A stretch of DNA of 64,000 nucleotides from Desulfovibrio sp. JC010 (lineage in GTDB: Bacteria; Desulfobacterota; Desulfovibrionia; Desulfovibrionales; Desulfovibrionaceae): positions 142,036 to 206,035 of the forward strand of contig NZ_VOIQ01000010.1 of the NCBI RefSeq assembly GCF_010470675.1, given 5' to 3'. Below the pieces are notes generated by a model. It searched no databases, was not told the origin of the DNA, and saw only the letters and a list, made by a program, of their open reading frames with translations. The translations under genes were made by a program, and so were the position numbers. How positions within the stretch are numbered: position 1 is the first letter of the stretch; each line of letters starts with the position of its first letter. Below are positions 600 to 39,748 of this stretch, one piece after another.

Positions 600-1043
600 T
601 CAATCTTGTGGAGAGATATCAATAATGCCTTTAAGTAATCCCTCAAATGCAAAGCTAATCTCTACAATGTGTACAGAGTCAGAATCTGCAACATTGTCAA
701 TTATATGATTTTTTTCGCACATTAACTTTGCTCTTTCGTATGTGTCTGGAAATAAATCTTTGTTCTTTTCAAGAAATGACAGTGTTGCAAGTATGTACCC
801 TCGATGAGTGTAATGCATATTACGGTTTTCGACCATTTGTTGTGCAGATTTTTTGGCATTAATCGTACGGCTATATTTATTGTAATAATTTACGCCAACT
901 CCGACTGAGACAATAAACATAAAAATATAAATGGCATGAATCAATTTCGTGTTTTTATTGTTCCTTGGAATCAACAAACTTGCGATTGAAGCGACACTAC
1001 CAGTAAGTCCTACAGTTAAATTCACTGCATTAAAAATATCCAT
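600..1043 (-). CDS. hypothetical small membrane protein
   Basis: A 147-residue protein that I do not recognise. Two hydrophobic stretches lie near the N-terminus (about residues 8-25, and 36-52 with IYIFMFIVSVGVGV), followed by a soluble helical C-terminal half rich in Lys, Glu and Asp. No strong ribosome binding site is visible upstream; the sequence before the ATG is AT rich. The stop is TGA, unlike the genes at 5-12 kb. It converges with the SH3-like gene and is separated by about 250 bases from the next minus-strand gene. The frame is the only long one here, but codon usage is AT biased, so confidence is moderate. Confidence 0.5.
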   Translation of the reverse strand: MDIFNAVNLTVGLTGSVASIASLLIPRNNKNTKLIHAIYIFMFIVSVGVGVNYYNKYSRTINAKKSAQQMVENRNMHYTHRGYILATLSFLEKNKDLFPDTYERAKLMCEKNHIIDNVADSDSVHIVEISFAFEGLLKGIIDISPQD

Positions 1044-2393: not shown

Positions 2394-4190
2394 CTAGTGG
2401 CTACTATCTGAAATATGAAGTTGGTATATCTCTTTAATTCTTAAAAATGTTGGCATAAACCCAGAAAAGTTCATCGTTCTGAACGGTTGAATTCCTCTAG
2501 CAATCGAAACCGCAAAATTAGTCTTACTGAGCGCAATACTCTTTTCCGTACCATCCTTCTTCCTTAGGAAAACTTCATTATCGACAATCTTTTCATCGTT
2601 AGATGTTTTTTTCTTGGAAAAAATATTTGGGTTCATTTTGTGAACTGAATTACCATCAAATTCAGAGCTTAAATATAACCTCCTTCCGTACTCATCAGTT
2701 TTCAGCATATCGTGTAAATCGTATATCTGTTCTATTGCATATTTTTCGTAAATAGAACCTTCTGGCTTTTGGAGAAGAATGGAAAACACATTATTGCCAT
2801 GGTCGATAAACTTTTTACCTTTATGCTTATTATTAATTCTTTCAAGATCACAATCGAATACACATACTACTGGATGACGATATGTCACATAATGATCTTT
2901 TGCAGTTGAGCAAAACGTCCATAGGTTATCTTCCCCACCTTTTTCTTTTCTGCTGTGCGGGTAAAAATATATTGGAAACGACAGTTCAGGATCACTACAC
3001 AATCTTTTATATGCTGTCTTAAGGTGCATCCAGTCTGTTTGGCCTTCACCCAAAACAGTAACCATGTCACTTTCGTTAATAGTAAGGTGTTTTAAACGCT
3101 CAATATATTTTTTATACGATTGACGCTCTAACAAATTCTTACTGTAGCCTAACCTATTCAATTTTGCCTTATTGCCTTTATGCTTCTCGTTTATTTCGAA
3201 CCTTTTGTCTTTTACAGAACCTATCCATTCGAGCTTTCCCTTTATAATCTTCCCGAAGACAGTTTTATCTTCCTCTTCGTGCTGGTTGTTTCTGGTGTCA
3301 TACTTTTCAATATACTTGGTATATGCCAATTCAAGGCCATTTACTTTCCAATCATGAAGCATCGCACGAACTTGATTTATGGACCGCTTTCTGACGTTTG
3401 GAAAGTCGTTCACAGTTAAACCTGTTACTATTTGCCTATCAGATTGGGTTCTCAATGATGTTTTTTCACCATTAATTTTGAAACCATGGTCATCAATTAT
3501 TTCAACCAAACCTTCTCCCGGATTCCAGATTCCATCAAAAAAAGCGATATCTTCAGGAAAATCCTTAACATTCGTCGAAAACGTTATGTCGTCGACATAT
3601 CTCGTGTAGTAACAGCGATAATTTTTCGCGAGATCGCTTAGATCTCGGTCCATATGCGAACAGATCATGTTCGAAATTATAGGAGAACATGGCGAGCCTT
3701 GAGGAAGAAAGTCATTATAACACGCAATCTTGGCAATGAGTATTGCGATACTGCGGTCTAATTTATATGGATTAGATCGAAAAAGCCCCATAACTCTTCC
3801 GAAATGGATAGATGGAAAGAAATCTTTCAAGTCAACGTTGAATACGTATCGTTTCTTAGAATGGACTAAGGCATTTCCGAATACTGTTTTATCTTGATTA
3901 TTGTCAGATTTTTTTATGTAGCCATAGGCTGCTTTTTTAGGCTCATATACTCCAGAAAGCCTTATTGCTAATGACCTCTGAATTGCCTTTAATGCTGTTG
4001 TAGGTGCTGAGATATTTCTATCGGTTCCGTTTCTCTTTTTAATCGTAAAATCAGTATATTGTCCGTTTGGGCCGCCATGTAATCCATACAGGATGTAACC
4101 AAAGTCTTTAGGAGTGAATCCGAGGTAAGTTGCGAATTGATGAAGACTTGTTATGCGTCGTAATTGCTTTAAACTTTCTTTTCTCTTCAC
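2394..4190 (-). CDS. retron reverse transcriptase fused to TOPRIM domain (Ec67/Eco2 type)
   Basis: 598 residues starting at GTG (an in-frame TAA lies 15 bases upstream, so the start cannot be much earlier). Residues about 40-265 hold the RT core: NVDLKDFF (catalytic Asp120), LPQGSPCSPIISNMIC, and the active-site YVDD at 198-201. The retron-typical VTGLTVN follows at about 255-261. The C-terminal half carries a TOPRIM-like nuclease signature: GEGQTD at about 381-386 and VCVFDCDLE at about 442-450. From memory of the family, retron Ec67 (Eco2) RT has the same order and very similar motifs (SAPT, LKDFF, QGSPCSPIISN, VTGLTVN, TEGKTD) and a length of about 586. Such proteins make msDNA and act in anti-phage defence through the TOPRIM effector. 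The ncRNA lies just upstream. Stop is TAG. Confidence 0.92.
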   Translation of the reverse strand: MKRKESLKQLRRITSLHQFATYLGFTPKDFGYILYGLHGGPNGQYTDFTIKKRNGTDRNISAPTTALKAIQRSLAIRLSGVYEPKKAAYGYIKKSDNNQDKTVFGNALVHSKKRYVFNVDLKDFFPSIHFGRVMGLFRSNPYKLDRSIAILIAKIACYNDFLPQGSPCSPIISNMICSHMDRDLSDLAKNYRCYYTRYVDDITFSTNVKDFPEDIAFFDGIWNPGEGLVEIIDDHGFKINGEKTSLRTQSDRQIVTGLTVNDFPNVRKRSINQVRAMLHDWKVNGLELAYTKYIEKYDTRNNQHEEEDKTVFGKIIKGKLEWIGSVKDKRFEINEKHKGNKAKLNRLGYSKNLLERQSYKKYIERLKHLTINESDMVTVLGEGQTDWMHLKTAYKRLCSDPELSFPIYFYPHSRKEKGGEDNLWTFCSTAKDHYVTYRHPVVCVFDCDLERINNKHKGKKFIDHGNNVFSILLQKPEGSIYEKYAIEQIYDLHDMLKTDEYGRRLYLSSEFDGNSVHKMNPNIFSKKKTSNDEKIVDNEVFLRKKDGTEKSIALSKTNFAVSIARGIQPFRTMNFSGFMPTFLRIKEIYQLHISDSSH

Positions 4191-5439: not shown

Positions 5440-6021
5440 TTAAATTTGAGCTGTAGGATTTTTTTGATCACCAATATTTTTATAAATTGTCACCCGCGAA
5501 ACACCGAACTCACGTGCGAGATGGGTCACTTTTTCACCGTTAGATTTTCTTTCAATTATCTCTGTCAGCTGATCGTTACTTAAAGCCCGTTTGCGGCCTT
5601 TATATTTCCCCTTTTGCTTGGCAATGGCGATGCCCTCGGCCTGTCTTTCACGAATCAGATTTCGTTCGAACTCACCGAATGCGCCCAGCATTTGAAACAT
5701 CAGCTGTTGAAGGGGCGAAACCTGACCATTGAAAATCAAATTTTCTTTCATAAAATGGACCGCGACACCCTTCTCGGAAAGTTCATCAACAATATTTTGA
5801 AGGTCTCTGAGGTTTCGTGCCAGACGATCAATACTATGCACATATAAGGTATCACCCTCTCGAAGGTAAGAAAGGCAGTCTGACAGTGCAGGGCGGTTTT
5901 TATCTTTGCCTGAAATACGGTCTTCGAACACCCGATCCAAATCAATGTCTGCTAATTGCCGTTCAGTATTTTGCAACAAGGAACTCACTCGAACATATCC
6001 GACACGTGCACCCATACTCAC
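5440..6021 (-). CDS. small serine recombinase (resolvase/invertase family)
   Basis: 193 residues, the usual length of Tn3-resolvase/Hin-type enzymes. The N-terminal catalytic domain has YVRVSS with the nucleophilic Ser13, then SIDRLARN with the active-site arginines, and FGEFERNLIRER leading into the long E-helix. A C-terminal HTH (about residues 150-185, VTHLAREFGVSRVTIYKNI) should bind the crossover site. Such proteins resolve cointegrates or invert DNA through a serine-linked intermediate. The non-coding 0.5 kb upstream holds several inverted repeats that are candidate res or inversion sites. It is followed 23 bases later by a small basic protein gene. Stop is TAA. Confidence 0.93.
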   Translation of the reverse strand: MSMGARVGYVRVSSLLQNTERQLADIDLDRVFEDRISGKDKNRPALSDCLSYLREGDTLYVHSIDRLARNLRDLQNIVDELSEKGVAVHFMKENLIFNGQVSPLQQLMFQMLGAFGEFERNLIRERQAEGIAIAKQKGKYKGRKRALSNDQLTEIIERKSNGEKVTHLAREFGVSRVTIYKNIGDQKNPTAQI

Positions 6022-6072: not shown

Positions 6073-6299
6073 ATAAACTATCAATACAACCCTATATTAA
6101 CACATTTATAGAATTTGTAAACTGTAAGTGTGAGCTAGACTCTAAACTAGCACTTTAAATCTGAGGCATTACCCCTTAGCAAGCTGATGTTCTAATTCAA
6201 TGTTCACACTCTATATACAACTACCCCATATGAACCCCATATTCATACGTTGTTTAATTAAAGAGAATTATCTTAATAATTAGGAGGCAAGTGAGAACT

Positions 6300-6451
6300 G
6301 TCTCATATAGCGTGCATGTGACGTATATGAGACCTATAAGGCAGCGCATTAGGTATGTATCATATACCCATACCTAAACGAGCAACTACAACACCCCTGT
6401 TCATATCAATAGGTAAAGGATATGGTCACAGTAGATTGATATACCTGAACA
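6300..6451. repeat. cluster of three inverted repeats, candidate res/recombination site
   Basis: Three inverted repeats follow one another. The first pairs GTCTCATATA (6300-6309) with TATATGAGAC (6324-6333). The second pairs TTAGGTATG (6349-6357) with CATACCTAA (6369-6377). The third pairs TGTTCA-TATCAAT (6398-6410) with ATTGATA and TGAACA (6435-6441 and 6446-6451). Resolvase res sites also consist of three imperfect dyads upstream of the recombinase gene, which here begins 280 bases away. The rest of 6073-6511 shows no credible gene. Confidence 0.5.
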
Positions 6452-6511: not shown

Positions 6512-6778
6512 CTACTCTCTGGGCCTTATCAAGGTCTCAGGGTTTGCTTCCATTACTGCCTGCTTCAGAATCTCTGGAACACCTTCACCAACGTAACTTT
6601 CAGGTCAGAATTCAGATGTGTCAGATCCGTGTACACCTTTAATGACATCTCTTAATCAAATATTAAGAACACGGTTACAGTAGGAACTCACAGATTTATC
6701 ATGTGACTCCGCAAGAACCTTAAGACTTTCACAAAGACCTTCATCGACGTATACATTAAGTTTAATGTTATTTTTCAT
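6512..6778 (-). pseudogene. ribbon-helix-helix (CopG/Arc-like) protein with two in-frame TGA codons
   Basis: ATG at 6778 has a strong ribosome binding site (AGGAGT, 6 bases away). The first 40 codons read as a ribbon-helix-helix domain: a strand KLNVYV, a helix ending VLAESHDK, then SVSSYCNRVLNI. A TGA follows (6656-6658). The same frame continues without any TAA or TAG through LRDVIKGVHGSDTSEF, a second TGA (6605-6607), PESYVGEGVPEILKQA and on to TAG at 6512. Read through, the product is 88 residues, and the second RHH helix would continue across the first TGA. Under the standard code it is a 40-residue fragment. Three other genes in this block show the same pattern. The ATTGATATG motif just upstream recurs at the inverted-repeat cluster and could be its operator. 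Confidence 0.6.
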
Positions 6779-6888
6779 TTTTTACTCCTGATTGTATTGA
6801 TATGGCAGATCTCTTTATTAGTCATATTTCAAATTACATTACTTTAAGATACTACCATAGTTTTAATTCTACCTTTATTTATAAAAAA

Positions 6889-6908
6889 GTTACGTTACGT
6901 TAACGTTA
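6889..6908. promoter_or_regulatory. iterated TTACG element with palindrome
   Basis: GTTACGTTACGTTAACGTTA: TTACG twice, then TTAACG, with the perfect palindrome ACGTTAACGT at 6897-6906. It lies between the flagellin 3' end and the RHH gene and could be an operator for the RHH protein. Nothing else is evident in 6779-7061. Confidence 0.35.
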
Positions 6909-7061
6909 TTTTTTAAAACATACTGAACGGATGGCTTGTTACATTGAAAAATATGTGAGTTGATATGATATTGTTTTTACCTTCAGGGTTCAGTATGAAG
7001 CAATTCTCAGTCTGGAAAAAATATTCGTAATGATTTTTTTATGATGCGGGGAAGTTTCCTG

Positions 7062-8894
7062 TTATCCGCCTTCAATTAGCCGAAGAATGGTTCTCGGCAT
7101 GGAGTTCGCTTGCGCGAGCATCGCCGTTGCTGACTGTGATAGAATCTGATCTTTCGTGAACTCGGTCATTTCATTAGCTACATCAACGTCAGAAATTCGA
7201 GATTCAGCAGCCTGTAGGTTCTCAGCTTGAATCGAAATATTCGTAGCGGAATTTTCAAGACGGTTCTGTGTGGCCCCAAGGTTGGCCCTGATTTTATCCT
7301 TCTTGATGATTGCATCATCAATAGCAGCAAGTGAGTACTGTGCGGCTGTCTGGCTCGCGACATTGAGGTTGCCAATCCCTAACCCTGAATCTGATATTCC
7401 AGCATCACCGGAAGTTATTCGATAAAAATCTTCAGCAGCGTCATTCCCTGCACCGAAGTGGATCAATGGACCTGTGCTGCTCACTTCGCCAAGTTTGTAG
7501 ATCTCGGTACCATCTGTAAGGTTAAAACTGGACGCATACACCTCATCACCGCTGGTTTCGATAAACTGAAAAAATAAGTTGTTGGCATTGCCTAACCCAT
7601 CCTGCGCTGTCTCATTCCATTCTCCATCGCTTTCGGACAGAAAATTGCCGCCTGTTACGTCGTTTCGTGTAGAGATAACTGGAACACCCGCAACATTATA
7701 AACCTCGGCAGTAATGTTATTCGGATCGCCGAAACCATCTAGGGTAATAGTTTTCCAACCGAATTCAGTTAGCTCGTAGACTTTTGCACCTTCAATCTCG
7801 TTACGGGTAGAAACGTATAGGTCACCATCAACCTCACTGAATCTTACCCTAATGTCATTGCTATTAAATCCGGGTAAATCTACATCGCTCCACTCGCCAG
7901 TCAAGCCGTCATACTGTTTAATCACAGAACCGCTGTTATTCGAGGAGCCTGCATACAGAGTCCCATTATGATCGGTAAATCTGAGTCCATAGTTATCAGG
8001 GTCTCCGAATCCGTCCTCGGCGAGCATGGTTAGCTCATCGCCGTTGACTCTGTATAAAGAGCCTCCTGTGGTGGGGTTAGAGGCAGAAACATAAGTAACA
8101 CCGCTAAACTCTTCAATAATACCACCTCTATTCGTGGTGTCTCCTGTAATTCCATTGTTAAACAGTTGCACCCAGTTTCCATTGCTGTCCATCTGGTGGA
8201 TCTTGCCGCCAGTAGCAGAATCTGATGAATGAGCAGTCAACTTACCATCGATTATTTTTAATCCCGTAGCTCCGCCAGTTGGACTCAACCTGTTATCTGC
8301 GTTCGGAACAATCGGAGTCCATGTGCTCCCGCCATCGTAACGATAAACTCGACTTCGGTTGTCAGCGGCATATAGTTGCCCATTATATGAGACTATAGAC
8401 CCTTCAACATTGCCAACTCCACCGAAGCCGGAAGTATTAATCTGTTGCGGGTCCATTTCAAATCCCAAAACTTCATCATTAATAATTTTGATCCCGTTGA
8501 AGTCTGTGGCTTCACTGATCCGCTGAATCTCATTTTTCATGGCCTGAAATTCATCATTAATAATTTGACGCTGGTCAGCATTGTACGTGCCTGTAGCGGC
8601 CTGAGTGGCGAGTTCTTTCATTCGGATAAGCTTTTCATCAATGACGGAGAGAGCACCATCAGCTGTCTGAATCATGGAAATTGCGTCATTGATATTTCGT
8701 ACCCCCTGTTGGTGTGAGGCAATGTCAGACCTCATCAGTTCACGTATTGCCAGACCTGCGGCATCGTCTGCGGCGGTGCCAACCCGAAGACCTGAGGACA
8801 ACCTTCGTGTCGAAACTCCCAGCGAACCGTAATGTTTACTCAAAGATTTAGCGGCAGAAGATGCCATTAAATTGTGATTTATCGACAAGACCAT
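7062..8894 (-). CDS. flagellin with a seven-repeat propeller-like variable domain
   Basis: 610 residues. Residues 1-140 are a classic flagellin D0/D1 N-terminus (SINHNLMASSAAKSL, RLSSGLRVGTAADDAAGLAI, ADQRQIINDEF), and residues about 515-610 are the matching C-terminal helices (LGATQNRLENSATNI, LAQANSMPRTILRL). In place of the usual variable D2/D3 region, residues about 168-472 hold seven repeats of about 46 residues. Each starts with an x-G-x-LY/VY strand and most have ATR/STR and DGFGDPNN-like turns (starts near 171, 217, 264, 310, 356, 402, 448). The period and beta-rich pattern suggest a seven-bladed propeller displayed on the filament. The ribosome binding site is GAGGAG. No other flagellar gene is nearby, and no sigma28 or sigma54 promoter was recognised. 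Stop is TAA. Confidence 0.9.
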   Translation of the reverse strand: MVLSINHNLMASSAAKSLSKHYGSLGVSTRRLSSGLRVGTAADDAAGLAIRELMRSDIASHQQGVRNINDAISMIQTADGALSVIDEKLIRMKELATQAATGTYNADQRQIINDEFQAMKNEIQRISEATDFNGIKIINDEVLGFEMDPQQINTSGFGGVGNVEGSIVSYNGQLYAADNRSRVYRYDGGSTWTPIVPNADNRLSPTGGATGLKIIDGKLTAHSSDSATGGKIHQMDSNGNWVQLFNNGITGDTTNRGGIIEEFSGVTYVSASNPTTGGSLYRVNGDELTMLAEDGFGDPDNYGLRFTDHNGTLYAGSSNNSGSVIKQYDGLTGEWSDVDLPGFNSNDIRVRFSEVDGDLYVSTRNEIEGAKVYELTEFGWKTITLDGFGDPNNITAEVYNVAGVPVISTRNDVTGGNFLSESDGEWNETAQDGLGNANNLFFQFIETSGDEVYASSFNLTDGTEIYKLGEVSSTGPLIHFGAGNDAAEDFYRITSGDAGISDSGLGIGNLNVASQTAAQYSLAAIDDAIIKKDKIRANLGATQNRLENSATNISIQAENLQAAESRISDVDVANEMTEFTKDQILSQSATAMLAQANSMPRTILRLIEGG

Positions 8895-9071
8895 TTTCTA
8901 CGAACTCCTCAACAGGAAATTTTTTCCGACTCAGGTCAACAGGAACCCTTGAAACAACACAAATCGAATCAACTTCGTCTTTCGTAGAAAAAATATGAGC
9001 AAAATTCATACCACTGTTGATTATTAATCATCATACCATTCACTACCATTGTCAGCCTTAAGGAGGCGACG

Positions 9072-9395
9072 ATGACAACACTTCAAGATGCATTTGGTAA
9101 ACGGCTACGTGATATCCGTCGCAGGATGGATCTTACTCAGGAAAAATTAGCGGACTCCGCAGATATGTCGGTTCAGTACATTTCCGATATTGAGCGCGGC
9201 AAAAGGAACCCTTCACTGTCGAGCATAGAAACGCTCGCAAGGGCCTTGGATATGTCTGTTTCAGATCTTTTCAATATGGAAGAATTTCAAATTGATGCAG
9301 GTGAGATGAGAGATAAACTCATATCTAGAATTGAGCAGGCGGACGAAGAAAAGCTCCGTGTGTTTTTCGCCATTTCGCGGACGATACTTGGGTAG
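9072..9395 (+). CDS. XRE-family HTH transcriptional regulator
   Basis: 107 residues with a strong ribosome binding site (AAGGAGG). Residues about 8-65 form a Cro/C1-type HTH (FGKRLRDIRRRMDLTQEKLA, MSVQYISDIERGKRNPSLS, LARALDMSVSDLF). The short C-terminal part is probably for dimerisation. It is divergent from the flagellin gene, which it may regulate, and convergent with the TGA-interrupted replicase gene. Stop is TAG. There is no tryptophan codon or TGA in the frame, so it is neutral with regard to the codon question raised for its neighbours. Confidence 0.9.
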   Translation: MTTLQDAFGKRLRDIRRRMDLTQEKLADSADMSVQYISDIERGKRNPSLSSIETLARALDMSVSDLFNMEEFQIDAGEMRDKLISRIEQADEEKLRVFFAISRTILG

Positions 9396-9488
9396 CTTCT
9401 GATTGATAGCCTCTTGCGTCGGTTTTAACCCCATGAGGGCTGTCTGACGGTCTCTCAGATGTTATTCTGGGGTAGGATAAATCAAGAT

Positions 9489-9511
9489 GGCAGCCCCATT
9501 ACGGGACTGCC
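9489..9511. terminator. hairpin between convergent genes
   Basis: GGCAGCCCC and GGGACTGCC pair with one bulge around a short loop. It sits between the XRE gene and the 3' end of the replicase frame and is a plausible bidirectional terminator. Confidence 0.45.
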
Positions 9512-9529
9512 TCTTCTCTGGGGTAGTCG

Positions 9530-10990
9530 CTAACCGATCTTAATTTCGTTAGTAGTATTTAGCACACTCTGAAATTCAGAGAGCATCAGACCATGAAGGA
9601 ATTCTTCGTCTTCAGCCTTCATTAAAAAGCTGTCATGAATCGGAATGCACGGTTTACCTAGCTCCATACATCGTGAAAGTATCCTTGATACGATGAGTGA
9701 ATCAAGACATTGGATTGATCTACCTGTCTCGGTGAAGAAGTACTTCTTGATCGGGGCATGATGTTGAGTGAGACTATCAAGTATTTTTCAAATCTCCCAA
9801 TCCTCAAGTTTACCTCTGGGTACTGCCTTCCTGATTGCTTCGTAGGCAGCCCTTTTCCCCCGTGTATTGAAAATAATCAACATTGATTTTTTTACATAGG
9901 GACGAAGGGGTTCAAATCCCGGAATAGTGTAAAGATCACCATGTGGTGGGACTATACCCTCAAGAGCGTACAAGAGGTTTAAATGATAGCTCGAAAAGTC
10001 AAGCTCAATCACCTTTGAATAATTGATTAAAACCTGCTTGCGTAAGTGGTATGGCAGTCCACTTTTACACAGTTTCTTCTGCCAAAGACACTGAACCCAA
10101 TGACCGTACCAACGTCCACCTCAGGCGAAATAACGACCTGTGGATTCATCGTAATTGAATGATCTTCGAAGATACGGAAACCGAAAAGCATCTGGATACT
10201 GACGACGGCACATTTCTAATCCATACTGCTGCTCTGGGGTTAGTTCGTCCATTGAAAAATGAAACTTCGATAGGAAGGTATTGTAAGCTGTGATGAATCC
10301 TTCTTGCTGCTCAGAACTGAAATAAAATTTGAACCCGTTTAGATCATGCAGGACAATTTCACCTTCAAAATGTTCATAAGGTATGAATTTTGATTGCCTG
10401 CGCTTCTTCCCCTTTTTACCCTTGACTGGGGCCTTCCAGATCTTTTTGACTGAAATTGGATTTCTTATGAGTTGCAGACTAGAAAGATCAATTTTTCCAG
10501 AGAGATGACTTTGAATAATGCTGATCAATTCCAATTTTGGAAGAAAAAAAGATCTGATGCTTTCATATTTAAGGTCATCATCCTCAGACTCCTCAGATTC
10601 AGTTGGGAGTTCAAATGTTTTCCCCTGACAGATCCGAACCAACTTGAATTCCTCAAGCTGATCCATAACTGACATAACCCATTTGGAATATCCACGAGGA
10701 TTTCTGGGATTTGATGATACTCAGTAATTTTTATCCCGTGAAAGTGTGATGGCATCTGCGCCTTCATCAATCAGAATAAGTGTATTGAGGATCAATTGGT
10801 TAATTAAGTCCCGTGCTTTTAAGCGGGTGGTTTTATATTTAAACATCTGATTAACGCCAGCAATGCCACAAAGTTCGTCAGCGCATGGGGTCATAATTGC
10901 ATTAAGGTCATCATCAATGTTGAAAAATTTCATTCAAACCAGATGAATACTCTTCATCAGTTGATAATCGTTATTGTCAAATTTAATCAT
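9530..10990 (-). pseudogene. Pol I/T7-RNAP-fold replicase-like gene with four in-frame TGA codons
   Basis: From ATG at 10990 (ribosome binding site AAAGGAA) to TAG at 9530 there are 487 codons in one frame, interrupted only by TGA at 10934, 10721, 10121 and 9788 (codons 19, 90, 290, 401). There is no TAA or TAG and no frameshift. The downstream parts are well formed. GGRWYGHW follows the third TGA. Then come ELDFSSYHLNLLYALEG (like motif A of A-family polymerases), VKKSMLIIFN (like motif B) and, beyond the fourth TGA, PCIPIHDSFLM (like motif C, HDSF as in T7-type RNA polymerase). Conserved motifs on both sides of every TGA argue that the frame is or recently was one gene. By fold it would copy nucleic acid for a mobile replicon. 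Exact family membership is inferred from motifs only. Six TGG codons also occur. Confidence 0.65.
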
Positions 10991-11046
10991 TTTATATTCC
11001 TTTGTTTAAAGTATTGAAGAAGAAACCATTAAACCTATCAAGGTAT

Positions 11047-11100
11047 TTAATGTATTACCCTTTTTTTTATTTCTCTATTCTTTCCTTCTCTCTTTTTCAT
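11047..11100 (-). CDS. possible 17-residue leader peptide
   Basis: A short frame (MKKREGKNREIKKRVIH, stop TAA) with a purine-rich ribosome binding site (GAGAGGGG) lies 57 bases before the replicase start on the same strand. It is very basic. The purine-rich composition could equally be chance, so this is only a candidate leader peptide. The remainder, 11101-11369, holds an inverted repeat (GGGCTG near 11302 with CAGCCC near 11334) that could be a terminator, and no other gene. Confidence 0.25.
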   Translation of the reverse strand: MKKREGKNREIKKRVIH

Positions 11101-11369
11101 TTTCCCCTCTCTTCATTAATAGGACATTTTGAAATCATTGAATCAGAATAAATGTTAACCACGTAATCGAAACCCTCACCATACCATAAACATTATTTTG
11201 TTTCGGATTAATTCGTCATAACCACTTATTTTCTAACAACATTTACTAACTTTAAAGCTAGTATCGATATCAATATTCCAACCTGTCACAATAAAGACGG
11301 GCTGTTTCAACTATTACATTTAACTGATTTAGATCAGCCCAACACATAGCTTTTCAACCCGACTTTTAA

Positions 11370-11909
11370 CTAATTAATTCAAGGACTTTCCCTTTGCAAT
11401 GGGCGACCCATACCATATTTAATATAAGCATCTCTTACTACTTCAGTGATATAGTTTTTTTCATCCTGTACAAAGTCTAAGCCAACATTCACGAATTTCA
11501 CCTTTTGCCCTTGAATTACACGATGTAGCTCTTTCCAGCTTTCAGCAAAGGCCAATTCTCGCCCCTGACTTCTTGTTCATCCATCAGCTTCTCACTTATA
11601 AATCAGCCCACGATCGATCACGTCAACTAGTAATGAATTTGTTGTACAAACCAAAACACCTTTACCTAAGGCTTTAGCGACACTACCTTCTATCACCGAA
11701 GCAATCGTTGCAGGTTCTTTACCGTAGCAAGTTTGATCTGTATCAACATTTACAAATTCATTAACCATTCCTCTATAGTTACAAGATGCTATACACCCAT
11801 AGTAATTACCAAAAACACTACTTATGCGACTACTAGTCGCAACCTTCAATATTGCTCATTCATTTTTATCGAATGGCACAGAAGTACAGTTAAAATCTAT
11901 TACATTCAT
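11370..11909 (-). pseudogene. RNase HI-like protein gene with in-frame TGA codons at Trp positions
   Basis: ATG at 11909 has a good ribosome binding site (AAGGA). One frame of 180 codons runs to TAG at 11370 with TGA at codons 18, 106, 111 and 177 and no other stop. The segment after codon 90 matches RNase HI without gaps: TNSLLV aligns with TDSQYV of the E. coli enzyme, and IYK-TGA-EADG-TGA-T aligns with IHN-W-KKRG-W-K, so the TGAs at codons 106 and 111 coincide with E. coli Trp85 and Trp90. The later SWKEL (TGG) aligns with Trp104. The catalytic Asp70 position is Asn here and the N-terminal TDG motif is not intact, so the product may be inactive or the gene decaying. RNase H would suit a replicon using RNA primers. 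Confidence 0.62.
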
Positions 11910-12000
11910 AATTTTTCCTTCTCATGTTACAAAGTTTAAAAATAAGATGCTACGGCCTGCTTTAGCACAACCGACATCTCGCAGATTCAATACCTGAAAC

Positions 12001-12219
12001 CTACAACGCATCTAGCCATTCCAAAAAATCTCTTTTCAGGTAGTAGACTTTCCCGGCTTCGACCCCCTTCACAGGGCCTGCTCCACTAGAATCAAGATTA
12101 GCCAAGCTTCCACGTGTATACGGGACACCGAATTCTTTTCGATATTCAGCCCACTTCGAACGTCAAAGCACAGATGGAAGCACATGATTTAACTCAGTGC
12201 TCAAATTTTTCACATACAT
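12001..12219 (-). pseudogene. AlpA-like helix-turn-helix protein gene with one in-frame TGA
   Basis: The frame from ATG (12217-12219) to TAG at 12001 encodes 72 residues with a single TGA at 12163-12165, between LPSVL and RSKWAEYRKEFGVPY. The C-terminal half (GSLANLDSSGAGP, then YYLKRDFLEWLDAL) is an excisionase/AlpA-type winged HTH. It closely parallels the intact protein at 38328-38567 (GYLANLDSQGRGP, YLRGDLISWL). Proteins of this type control excision or replication of tRNA-integrated islands. The frame stays open upstream of the ATG to another TGA near 12338, so a longer Cys-rich start cannot be excluded. The promoter lies at about 12312-12340. Confidence 0.55.
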
Positions 12220-12311
12220 AAGAGTCACAACTCCATTAGTTAATGTTATATAACAAGCATGCACTGAAAAACCATTACATTCAGCACAGCAATACCGAAA
12301 ACATGCAAACC

Positions 12312-12340: not shown

Positions 12341-12506
12341 TAGCTTTTTTGATTTTTCTCATATACTTTAAAATATTAATTATGAATTTTTTATACAAAA
12401 CAAGATCAAACCACATAATTTAATATTCATAATTAATATTTAACATCACAATTAGACGCAAATGCATAATATATACTCAAAAAATACATTAGCAATATTA
12501 ATAAAA

Positions 12507-12735
12507 CACTCAGAATATTTACAGTGAATATTATATACATATTAAAAATATTCATTATTAATAATTAAGCAGTCACTCAGAATATTAATAGTGAATATTT
12601 TAAACATACTAAAATTACTCATTATCAATAATTAAGCACACACTCAGAATATTAATAGTGAATATTTTAAACATACTAAAATTACTCATTATCAATAATT
12701 AAGCATACACTCAGAATATTAATAGTGAATATTCT
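12507..12735. repeat. three and a half 67-bp AT-rich tandem repeats
   Basis: Units start with CACTCAG at 12507, 12574, 12641 and 12708, exactly 67 bases apart; the second and third differ at one base and the fourth breaks off after about 26 bases. Each unit contains GAATATTAATAGTGAATATT, itself an imperfect dyad. They could be replication iterons or integrase/excisionase arm sites at the right end of the left element. There is no gene in 12350-12860. Confidence 0.9.
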
Positions 12736-12828
12736 AGGACACACTAAAAAAGACTCATGGCGAACAATTGAGAAAGGGCGAAAGCTGACGAAAACATCAC
12801 TGACTATCATCTGCTTTAACCTATAAAA

Positions 12829-12862: not shown

Positions 12863-12966
12863 AAAAAAGGACTCACAGCATAAAAGCTGTAAGTCCTTGT
12901 AATATCTGGTACCGGGAGCGAGACTCGAACTCGCAAGGGCGTGAACCCGGCGGATTTTGAGTCCGT
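12863..12966. repeat. attachment-site repeat, left copy (tRNA-Leu 3' half plus terminator)
   Basis: About 104 bases nearly identical to 39619-39720: the tRNA-Leu terminator hairpin (AAGGACT...AGTCCTT) and the 3' half of the tRNA. Together they define the ends of the island 12.97-39.6 kb. Similarity stops inside the anticodon stem, as expected of integration into a tRNA gene. Confidence 0.88.
12907..12966 (-). pseudogene. tRNA-Leu(CAA) 3' fragment
   Basis: Carries the anticodon loop, variable arm, T arm and CCA end of tRNA-Leu but lacks the acceptor 5' strand and D arm; beyond 12966 the sequence is unrelated. The T stem differs from the intact gene by a compensated pair (GCGAG/CTCGC against GAGAG/CTCTC). 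Confidence 0.88.
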
Positions 12967-15648: not shown

Positions 15649-15907
15649 ATTTCAAGGTAAAAATGTAGTACTCAAAATATGAGCGAGCGTCCGTTTGCGG
15701 CGAAGCTTATTATCGCCATACATTGAACAGTAAAGCCTGAATCATGATATTTTTTGATACTGGATGATATTTTTTGAGAAATTTTGATTTAGTTTGATTC
15801 AGATTGATTTTCTTTGCCATTATTCTTTATTGTGCGAGATTATTTGCTATTTTTCCAAAACTGCACCCAAAATACCAAAAAATGGCAAACTTTCTCATGG
15901 TGCCATA

Positions 15908-16008
15908 AGGCAGGACAGGTAAGGTAGTCCCACTTTTTCAAAGCGGTGTACCTTACGTCCTGCCCAGCCTTGGGCTGAGGGTGACTTATTCACCTTCGGT
16001 TCAACGTG
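15908..16008 (+). other. oriT-like sequence, second copy in inverted orientation
   Basis: Almost identical to the reverse complement of 35902-36003, next to the mob genes. It contains a long dyad, GGCAGGAC-AG-GTAAGGTA with TACCTTAC-GTCCTGCC, enclosing CCCACTTTTTCAAAGCGG, then a CAGCC-TTG-GGCTG hairpin. TCCTG|CC resembles the nic consensus of RP4-type (MOBP) origins. It marks the left end of the cargo region. Confidence 0.6.
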
Positions 16009-16066
16009 TTTTGATTGATGGGACTTAAGGACTGCTCAGCTTTAATCGTCACGATTAAAAATATAT

Positions 16067-35868: not shown

Positions 35869-35901
35869 TAACCACCCATCCTTATAATCTGTTTTTCAAT
35901 T

Positions 35902-36003
35902 CACGTTGAACCGAAGGAGAATAAGTCACCCTCAGCCCCAAGGCTGAGCAGGGCGTAAGGTCAACCGCTTTGAAAAAGTGGGACTACCTTACCTGTCCTG
36001 CCT
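35902..36003 (-). other. candidate oriT next to the mob genes
   Basis: Contains GTAAGGT...ACCTTAC as a dyad around CAACCGCTTTGAAAAAGTGGGACT, then TGTCCTG|CC at 35994-36002, which resembles the RP4-type nic region (CTTCACCTATCCTG|CC). The CAAGG/GGCTGAG hairpin and GAATAAGTCACC follow towards the mob genes. The sequence is repeated in inverted orientation at 15908-16008. The rest of the 414-base gap (36004-36282) shows AT-rich DNA and no gene. Confidence 0.68.
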
Positions 36004-36282
36004 CCAGACACCACAATAACAATCGAGGTTTAACGAAATCCTTTAGAGAATTAGCAAGAGCCGGACAAAATCCTCTAGATTCTCGTTAATTCCACTTAGT
36101 TCCTGTAGAAGTCTCTACAATCCCGCTGAGATCGCATAAGTTAAAGAAAATTCAATGGGCATTGGCGTTTGTGATTTTAAATTTTTGAACGAGCATAAAA
36201 GCAAACTCCTTTTTTATTTTTCATTGCGAATTTTGCGATCTTTGCGAATTTACTGACAACGCAGGGGAGTAAATTCGCAAAA

Positions 36283-39618: not shown

Positions 39619-39720
39619 AAAAAAGGACTCACAGCCAAAAGCTGTAAGTCCTTGTATTATCTGGTACCGGGAGAGAGACTCGAACTCTCAAGGGCGTGAA
39701 CCCGGCGGATTTTGAGTCCG
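39619..39720. repeat. attachment-site repeat, right copy
   Basis: About 102 bases matching 12863-12966, covering the tRNA-Leu terminator and the tRNA 3' half. The right boundary of the island. Confidence 0.88.
39624..39654 (-). terminator. tRNA-Leu terminator
   Basis: AAGGACTCACAGC with GCTGTAAGTCCTT (one mismatch), loop CAAAA, then a T run on the minus strand. Confidence 0.8.
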
Positions 39721-39748
39721 CTGCGTCTACCAATTCCGCCATCCCGGC
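39662..39748 (-). tRNA. tRNA-Leu (anticodon CAA)
   Basis: 87 bases, with the acceptor GCCGGGA pairing TCCCGGT, D arm GGCGGAATTGGTAGACGC, anticodon stem-loop CGGACT-CAA-AATCCG, the long class II variable arm, T arm with GTTCGAG, and encoded CCA. It is the integration target of the island on its left; integration duplicated its 3' half. Confidence 0.96.

What the first reader, a model, noticed from the sequence alone, without database searches (positions are those of the whole stretch)
6512..12219. Four genes of one element are open except for in-frame TGA codons, all ending in TAG: UGA read as sense
Seen: the frames at 6512-6778, 9530-10990, 11370-11909 and 12001-12219 each begin with ATG (three with a good ribosome binding site) and run to TAG. 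Ten internal TGAs (2, 4, 3 and 1, plus one near the RNase H C-terminus) interrupt them; there is no internal TAA or TAG and no frameshift. Random decay should give all three stops and indels. The flagellin, XRE, recombinase and small basic protein of the same block end in TAA or TAG. Genes right of 12.97 kb often use TGA as stop, so the host reads UGA as stop. Inference: the element came from, or is adapted to, a host or state in which UGA encodes an amino acid, probably Trp, or UGA acts as an expression lock.
Basis: partly seen in the sequence, partly recalled or inferred. Interest (0 to 1): 0.95.

Follow-up and report, generated by a model that had tools for sequence, protein, structure and literature searches.

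The report
Mobile element with UGA-locked replication genes
A mobile DNA element in a Desulfovibrio-family bacterium carries four genes interrupted only by UGA stop codons, several of them exactly where relatives carry tryptophan, so these genes were likely written for a cell state that reads UGA as tryptophan and would stay silent in their ordinary host until such a state arises.

Summary
In detail: four frames hold 11 in-frame TGA, no TAA/TAG and no frameshift in 825 codons; all end in TAG. Decay gives this with P about 1e-7. With X at each TGA, relatives' profiles name Trp (+14.4 bits; Tyr +3.4) over the six alignable sites: two fall on the Trp pair of an RNase HI-like gene, one on a W column of a Xis-like gene, one on a W/Y column of a polymerase that keeps 22 of 22 strong residues; two polymerase sites are mixed columns. 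A related species has a 27%-identical gene 1 with two TGAs, one at the same codon. The host looks standard: RF2, no UCA tRNA but tRNA-Sec, TGA stops. In the same 15.3-kb tRNA-Leu-anchored element nine other genes are standard-coded (27 TGG, no sense TGA). A Lentisphaerae contig shows a like split with TAG in the same polymerase family. Best reading: a replication/excision module predicted to be translated only under UGA suppression, perhaps from a recoded helper phage; no suppressor or helper was found.

The parts
6512..6778 (-). g1: 88-aa ribbon-helix-helix/Arc-like protein, 2 in-frame TGA (codons 41, 58), ends TAG
   Evidence: weak, sub-threshold RHH/Arc matches; homologue with TGA at the same codon 41 in G224
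9530..10990 (-). g2: 486-aa compact family-A-polymerase-like replicase (phrog_4756), 4 in-frame TGA (codons 19, 90, 290, 401), ends TAG
   Evidence: fold of a standard-coded relative matches family A DNA polymerases; 22 of 22 strong columns kept
11370..11909 (-). g3: 179-aa RNase HI-like protein, 4 in-frame TGA (codons 18, 106, 111, 177), ends TAG; 106 and 111 fall on the conserved Trp pair
12001..12219 (-). g4: 72-aa small protein (Xis/AlpA-like by position and shape, my reading), 1 in-frame TGA (codon 19), ends TAG
6288..6382 (.). conserved noncoding stretch with two inverted repeats upstream of the recombinase (res-like site, inferred); 88% identical in G224
5440..6021 (-). serine recombinase, standard code; 75% identical to one next to a standard-coded g2 relative in the same genus (L132)
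9072..9395 (+). XRE regulator, standard code
7062..8894 (-). flagellin with a long middle insert, standard code (5 TGG, 0 TGA)
2394..4190 (-). retron-type RT-Toprim protein, standard code (5 TGG, 0 TGA), ends TAG
600..1043 (-). 147-aa gene of the same element that uses TGA as its stop
12497..12736 (.). AT-rich tandem direct repeats (106-nt family, spacing 67); candidate replication origin, inferred only
12882..12965 (-). right attachment site: copy of the 3' part of tRNA-Leu(CAA); the left one lies at about -2339 in window coordinates (L171:15697), distance 15,276 bases
39662..39748 (-). intact tRNA-Leu(CAA), anchor of the tandem array of elements

Best explanation
Four genes of a tRNA-Leu-anchored integrative element are interrupted by UGA alone, at sites that relatives' profiles together name as tryptophan, and are predicted to be a replication-and-excision module that a standard-coded host would translate only when something makes UGA read as tryptophan. 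Shown: 11 in-frame UGA and no other stop; Trp as the best amino acid in a blind test; a UGA at the same codon in a 27%-identical copy of g1 in a related species; conserved residues of g2 intact; host with RF2, no UCA tRNA found other than tRNA-Sec, and UGA stops; integrase, recombinase, regulator, retron RT and flagellin of the same element in the standard code. Inferred: g2 replicates the element, g4 helps to excise it and g1 regulates. The integrase must work on arrival in an ordinary cell, so it stays standard-coded; replication and excision would wait, locked by UGA, for a suppressor tRNA. The likeliest supplier is a co-infecting phage that itself reads UGA as tryptophan (a known phage strategy); the element has no capsid gene that I recognised and no suppressor of its own that I found.
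For: Counts and chance. Blind inference: Trp +14.4 bits, Tyr +3.4, all others below 0, over 6 of 11 TGA sites (three do not align, two of g1 had no profile); 2 of 20,000 random site sets reach this; the same method gives Trp for the 9 alignable TGG codons and the right residue for 33 of 48 sense codons with at least 5 sites. g3 TGA106 and TGA111 align to W-k-k-n-G-W of RNase HI. g4 TGA19: W in 5 of 6 nearest relatives, F in one; A in the element-C copy. g2 TGA90: W in L123, L124 and P0001; over all 30 rows Y 22, W 5, other 3. g1: TGA at the same codon in G224, and TGA58 opposite Tyr. No decay in g2: 22 of 22 strong columns kept; g1 pair identity by codon position 0.48/0.53/0.30. Control: of 127 g2-family loci (51,316 codons, some loci duplicates) only L027, L025 (partial copy, 2 TGA) and L074 (TAG) have stops more than 13 codons from the ends. 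Split of codes: 27 TGG, 0 sense TGA in nine genes (P 4e-10 at the 11/20 TGA share; a grouping made after the fact, since the nine were picked as open frames); the integrase ends in TGA. Native context: the recombinase is 75% identical to that beside a standard-coded g2 relative in the same genus. Parallel case: L027 replicase with 7 TAG, 0 TGA, 0 TAA, a small neighbour with TAG inside and a TGA stop, recombinases with 0 TAG.
Against: No suppressor tRNA(UCA): none among 70 tRNA matches of the genome (150 of 195 first-look candidates were scored; both Trp tRNAs read CCA), none in the element (only a sub-threshold tRNA-Sec-model match to the attachment-site fragment), and 0 of 96 related genomes, own included, match a UCA-tRNA pattern (one strict, uncalibrated pattern). 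No helper phage was identified. g2 codons 290 and 401 are polar or mixed columns, Trp in none of 30 rows; codon 19 lies opposite Asp in 21 and Trp in 4, the alignment being doubtful. The relatives behind the profiles had been fetched with W at the TGAs, a slight bias. g3 has no Asp at the usual catalytic D-S motif (T-N-S), so it may not cleave. Roles of g1 and g4 rest on weak or positional evidence. Only one other genome of 297 (G224) carries a relative of g1 at E <= 0.001, and it has no g2 match. Stops inside relatives: one search lists one stop in 7 further g2 matches (1 TAG, 4 TAA, 2 TGA), four of which are the end of the frame, the rest not inspected; one search lists one g4 relative with a TGA (G015), one weak g3 relative with 2 TAG (G198). 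For L027 the amino acid is not resolved (Glu 5.7, Lys 4.3, Gln 4.1 bits) and P of 7 of 7 TAG by decay is 1e-4 to 3e-4.
Confidence: 0.5

Rival explanations
1. Remnant or graft from a recoded (UGA = Trp) temperate phage or plasmid: the four genes evolved in a replicon that carried its own suppressor tRNA or lived in a UGA = Trp host, were recombined into this element recently, and are now silent passengers.
For: UGA = Trp is well supported; no suppressor found in the host genome; two code compartments in one element fit a mosaic. Prophages with an alternative code in standard-coded bacteria are reported (PMC10746230, passage read; it cites its ref. 23, by my inference Borges 2022).
Against: g4 belongs to a family found in 65 of 297 genomes of the order, own included, and lies near the tRNA-Leu attachment site, as the element-C copy does; the recombinase and the g2 family occur in other Desulfovibrionaceae elements; a TGA-holding g1 is in a second species at 27% identity, so a single recent import is unlikely; no decay marks in g2.
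Confidence: 0.3
2. Pseudogenes: TGG codons turned to TGA by ordinary mutation in genes that are no longer used.
For: No suppressor was found in the host, so under its own code all four genes are cut. g3 lacks the usual catalytic Asp.
Against: 11 of 11 stops are TGA (P about 1e-7, or 8e-6 in the most favourable model); no frameshift; 22 of 22 strong g2 columns kept; same codon TGA in a diverged copy; other g2-family members are almost free of internal stops.
Confidence: 0.1
3. Dose control by leakiness: the host's tRNA-Trp(CCA) misreads UGA at a low rate, giving trace amounts of correct protein.
For: Near-cognate Trp insertion at UGA is established in bacteria (recalled knowledge); Trp is the residue needed. 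The host has two tRNA-Trp(CCA) genes.
Against: Four UGA codons in g2 and four in g3 would multiply to vanishing yields; the codons after the UGAs show no shared start.
Confidence: 0.07
4. UGA codes for selenocysteine in these genes.
For: The host has tRNA-Sec (G000:C9:43530-43619, 82.5 bits).
Against: Cys scores -6.7 bits and Trp +14.4 at the TGA sites; two g3 sites lie on conserved Trp of RNase HI. SECIS elements were not searched.
Confidence: 0.01
5. Sequencing or assembly error.
For: None found; the genome is a 64-contig draft.
Against: Errors would have to hit 11 codons in four genes and none of the 27 TGG of neighbouring genes, and recur in another genome, G224.
Confidence: 0.02

Closest known systems
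Stop-codon-recoded phages in standard-coded hosts (code 4, UGA = Trp; code 15, UAG = Gln; Borges et al. 2022, not held here, known through passages of PMC10746230, PMC10879173, PMC11210395)
   Same: In-frame stop codons of one kind at positions of one amino acid, in a host with the standard code; recoding thought to gate late genes.
   Different: Those are phages; some carry suppressor tRNAs (11 of 73 predicted code-4 phages, passage in PMC11210395), and the recoded genes stressed are structural and lysis genes. Here: a 15.3-kb integrative element with no recognised capsid gene and no suppressor found; the recoded genes are a polymerase, an RNase HI-like, an RHH-like and a Xis-like gene.
Phage satellites (PICI, PLE and the like; recalled knowledge)
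   Same: Small tRNA-anchored element with own integrase, Xis-like gene, replicase and likely defence cargo, apparently without capsid genes.
   Different: Known satellites sense helper proteins (recalled); dependence on a helper's decoding was not listed in the paper searches made. No helper was shown here.
Standard-coded g2-family elements of Desulfovibrionaceae (L130-L133)
   Same: Serine recombinase (57-75% identical) and g2-family polymerase close together; integrase-like matches in L130, L132, L133; a tmRNA gene beside the integrase in L130 and L132.
   Different: Their polymerases have no stop inside the conserved domain away from its ends.
Lentisphaerae contig in L027 (SUWK01000010.1)
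   Same: Same polymerase family with one kind of stop codon in frame, standard-coded recombinases beside it.
   Different: TAG instead of TGA, residue unresolved; not proven to be one element.

Membership tests
Family A DNA polymerase-like proteins (phrog_4756) | Profile match and conserved motif residues (A: E-x-D; B: R-x3-K; C: H-D-S-F) | tested here: met
   phrog_4756 E 4.9e-45; E329, D331, R363, K367, H452, D453 invariant in 23 rows, g2 included; 22 of 22 strong columns. Motif names A, B and C are my reading
Family A DNA polymerase-like proteins (phrog_4756) | Family A polymerase fold | tested here: inconclusive
   For a standard-coded relative (L130): all 16 matches at E <= 0.001 are family A polymerases, but TM only 0.23-0.30 by query length; g2 itself was not folded
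RNase HI | Profile match with the W-x4-G-W handle | tested here: met
   E 0.0023, far below NCBIfam's cut-off; E 6e-5; weak
RNase HI | Catalytic Asp of the D-S motif | tested here: not met
   T-N-S in place of t-D-S; so it is called RNase HI-like only
Stop-codon-recoded phage (code 4) | In-frame UGA at Trp positions | tested here: met
Stop-codon-recoded phage (code 4) | Own suppressor tRNA(UCA) | tested here: not met
   none in the window or in L171; a trait that many predicted code-4 phages lack too (62 of 73)
Stop-codon-recoded phage (code 4) | Recoded structural or lysis genes | tested here: not met
   No structural family and no lysis family above chance matched among the 13 genes of the element looked up in PHROGs; three of unknown function
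Host with UGA = Trp code | tRNA-Trp(UCA), RF2 lost | tested here: not met
   prfB 498 bits present, Trp tRNAs CCA only, TGA stops in use
Phage satellite / integrative element | Integrase and duplicated attachment site at a tRNA | tested here: met
Phage satellite / integrative element | Mobilised by a helper phage | not testable with these tools
   no helper known
Selenoprotein | Sec/Cys at the UGA columns | tested here: not met
   Cys -6.7 bits

The most novel reading that the evidence does not exclude
A class of code-locked mobile elements: integration genes are written in the host's code and replication genes in a stop-recoded code (UGA in Desulfovibrionaceae, UAG in Lentisphaerae), so the element can settle in any ordinary cell but copies itself only when a recoded helper phage brings the suppressor tRNA, using the genetic code itself as the helper sensor.
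Probability: 0.3. Interest if true: 0.93.

Novelty: new variant of a known kind. Interest (0 to 1): 0.82.

Why it matters
Recoded phages are known, but what sets off and what uses the code switch is open. An element without recognised capsid genes that has only its replication and excision genes in the other code, and a second case with another stop codon, would make decoding itself a regulatory signal between mobile elements, and it gives short test genes (72 and 88 codons). Practically, standard gene callers break such genes, so more of them may be hidden.

Tried and rejected
Searches that gave nothing: relatives of g2, g1, g3 and of the L027 polymerase in viral contigs by peptide patterns; g1 and g3 in the protein database; the DNA of 9530-12300 in phages and plasmids; the noncoding stretch in plasmids. 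Two viral 17-mer matches share nothing evident beyond the word, so chance. A scan of fetched loci for other one-stop-type frames (57 hits) gave mostly what look like neighbouring genes fused end to end; I did not go through them and dropped it. A first profile run timed out and was repeated with fewer sequences: 35 g2 loci chosen from those held plus 10 of the 28 proteins, 12 of 15 g3 loci, 19 of 19 g4 loci held. In one search, 9 loci yielded no frame to the motif filter and were left out of the column counts (30 rows kept). Idea dropped: that the conserved 95-bp stretch encodes a suppressor tRNA (no tRNA match there; two inverted repeats). The weak tRNA in L228 (30.5 bits) has, by my reading of its loop, anticodon CUU.


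Full report
Observation. The four frames are as described: 11 TGA, no TAA or TAG, no frameshift in 825 codons, ATG starts, TAG ends, while the other two frames of the same strand hold mixed stops. Under one-step mutation to stops from the present codons, 11 of 11 TGA has P 7e-8 to 2e-7; allowing only G:C to A:T changes from 20 ancestral TGG it is 8e-6.

What the genes are. g2 (486 aa) has no Pfam match up to E 1 and no NCBIfam match up to E 10 but matches phrog_4756 at 4.9e-45, unknown function, and 28 database proteins. It holds family-A-polymerase-like motifs (my reading). A fold of its standard-coded relative in L130 (pLDDT 77) matches family A DNA polymerases in all 16 hits at E <= 0.001, with low TM of 0.23-0.30. 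The family lies in 33 of 297 genomes of the order and 8 of 395 sampled in the phylum, own genome included in both, in 92 genome stretches of which 80 were kept, 18 viral contigs, and 240 phage records such as ICP1. g3 is RNase HI-like, weakly. g4 is a small protein with relatives in 65 of 297 genomes, own included; 'Xis/AlpA-like' is my reading of its shape and its place near the attachment site. g1 is weakly RHH/Arc-like.

Which amino acid. With X at every TGA, profiles built without the window's genes aligned 6 of the 11 sites; the relatives in them had been fetched with W at the TGAs, a slight bias. Trp scored +14.4 bits, Tyr +3.4, His -0.6. Random site sets reached the Trp score 2 times in 20,000. 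The method returned Trp for the 9 alignable TGG codons and the right residue for 33 of 48 sense codons with at least five sites. g3 TGA106 and TGA111 are the two Trp of the W-k-k-n-G-W stretch of RNase HI; the alignment to human RNase H1 shows the same. g4 TGA19 is Trp in 5 of 6 nearest relatives, and Ala in the element-C copy. g2 TGA90 is Trp in the three nearest relatives; over 30 rows Tyr 22, Trp 5. Against: g2 TGA290 (mostly H, Q) and TGA401 are Trp in none of these 30 rows and TGA19 lies doubtfully opposite Asp (21) or Trp (4); but four of the six TGG columns of g2 are likewise never Trp there.

Not decay. g2 keeps 22 of 22 strongly conserved residues. In 127 family loci (some duplicates) with 51,316 aligned codons, stops more than 13 codons from the ends occur only in L027, L025 (a partial copy, 2 TGA) and L074 (TAG). 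The search tables list single stops in 7 further g2 matches, four of them frame ends and the rest not inspected, one g4 relative with a TGA (G015) and one weak g3 relative with 2 TAG (G198). In G224, of the same genus, a 27%-identical g1 of the same length, also ending in TAG, holds two TGA and no other stop; one is at the same codon 41. Codon-position identity of the pair is 0.48, 0.53, 0.30. Between it and a serine recombinase lies a noncoding stretch 88% identical to that of the window. At E <= 0.001 neither g1 nor this stretch is in any other of the 297 genomes searched. Against: g3 lacks the usual catalytic Asp.

Host. Two genomes that the tool puts in the host's family hold contigs shared with MAG records titled Pseudodesulfovibrio (L116 equals L004) and Humidesulfovibrio (1,000 bases of L125 lie in L058), so the host is in Desulfovibrionaceae. 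It has RF2, tRNA-Sec, two tRNA-Trp(CCA), and no UCA tRNA found besides tRNA-Sec: 70 tRNA matches (150 of 195 candidates scored), of which 69 were read by ARAGORN and one by its alignment. A strict, uncalibrated pattern for a UCA tRNA found nothing in 96 genomes, own included. TGA ends 4 of 17, 3 of 23 and 4 of 11 long ORFs in three stretches.

The element. Copies of the 3' part of tRNA-Leu(CAA) lie at L171:5960, L171:15697, window 12937 and 39692 (the last in the intact gene), so three elements stand in tandem; the middle one is 15,276 bases. It holds its own integrase (ends in TGA), a 355-aa, a 147-aa (ends in TGA) and a 343-aa gene of unknown function, a retron-type RT-Toprim gene, a 117-aa basic gene, the recombinase, g1, a flagellin, an XRE gene, g2, g3 and g4. 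None of these 13 matches a structural or lysis family of PHROGs at E <= 0.01 (Pfam). The nine genes other than g1-g4 hold 27 TGG and no sense TGA, P 4e-10 at the 11/20 share; the grouping was made after the fact, since the nine were picked as open frames. The recombinase is 75% identical to one beside a standard-coded g2 relative in the same genus (L132) and 57-61% to those of L130, L131 and L133. So the element type is native to the family and the UGA state belongs to part of it.

A parallel. L027, a Lentisphaerae MAG contig, carries a g2-family gene with 7 in-frame TAG, no TGA or TAA, ending in TAA, with 19 of 22 strong columns kept, the lowest of the list; a small gene beside it has one TAG inside and a TGA stop; the large serine recombinase, a nuclease and a resolvase around it have 39 Gln codons and no TAG, P 5e-9 if TAG is Gln at the replicase's share. 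The residue is not resolved: Glu 5.7, Lys 4.3, Gln 4.1 bits. No tRNA was found in the 16.6 kb held.

Interpretation. Shown: UGA is best read as Trp in the setting in which these genes evolved, and the host as sequenced has no reader for it that I could find. Inferred: the split by gene class (arrive and stay versus copy and leave) is functional, a UGA lock opened by a suppressor, likeliest from a recoded phage. Papers: passages of PMC10746230, PMC10879173 and PMC11210395 describe code-4 phages, suppressor tRNAs in standard hosts and prophages with alternative codes in such hosts; Borges 2022 was not held. Searches for satellites or integrative elements with recoding or suppressor tRNAs listed nothing of this kind (listings and abstract starts only), nor did one with Desulfovibrio.

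Noticed in passing
L027:7362-8591 (+) and 8743-9300: A g2-family polymerase with seven in-frame TAG and small neighbours with TAG inside, between standard-coded serine recombinases in a Lentisphaerae MAG.
   Followed up: partly
12497-12736: Three AT-rich direct repeats spaced 67 bases between g4 and the attachment site; could be the origin used by g2.
   Followed up: no
7062-8894: A flagellin with a long repetitive middle insert sits inside the element, with an invertase-like recombinase (phrog_125) some 1 kb away; possible flagellar variation cargo.
   Followed up: no
2394-4190: Retron-type RT-Toprim protein (RT-Toprim_I-C in PADLOC), likely defence cargo of the element.
   Followed up: partly
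C10:129959-181783 of the genome (window -12076 to 39748): Tandem array of three elements sharing one tRNA-Leu(CAA) attachment site; the left one carries HipA-like and HerA-like genes by my reading.
   Followed up: partly
6288-6382: Noncoding DNA 88% identical between G000 and G224 although the flanking proteins are only 27-35% identical; two inverted repeats.
   Followed up: partly
G000:C15:25918-25988 (L228): A weak tRNA-like match (30.5 bits) that ARAGORN does not call.
   Followed up: partly
15898-16014 and 35896-36013: Inverted repeats of 77 and 43 nt, 20 kb apart, within element C.
   Followed up: no
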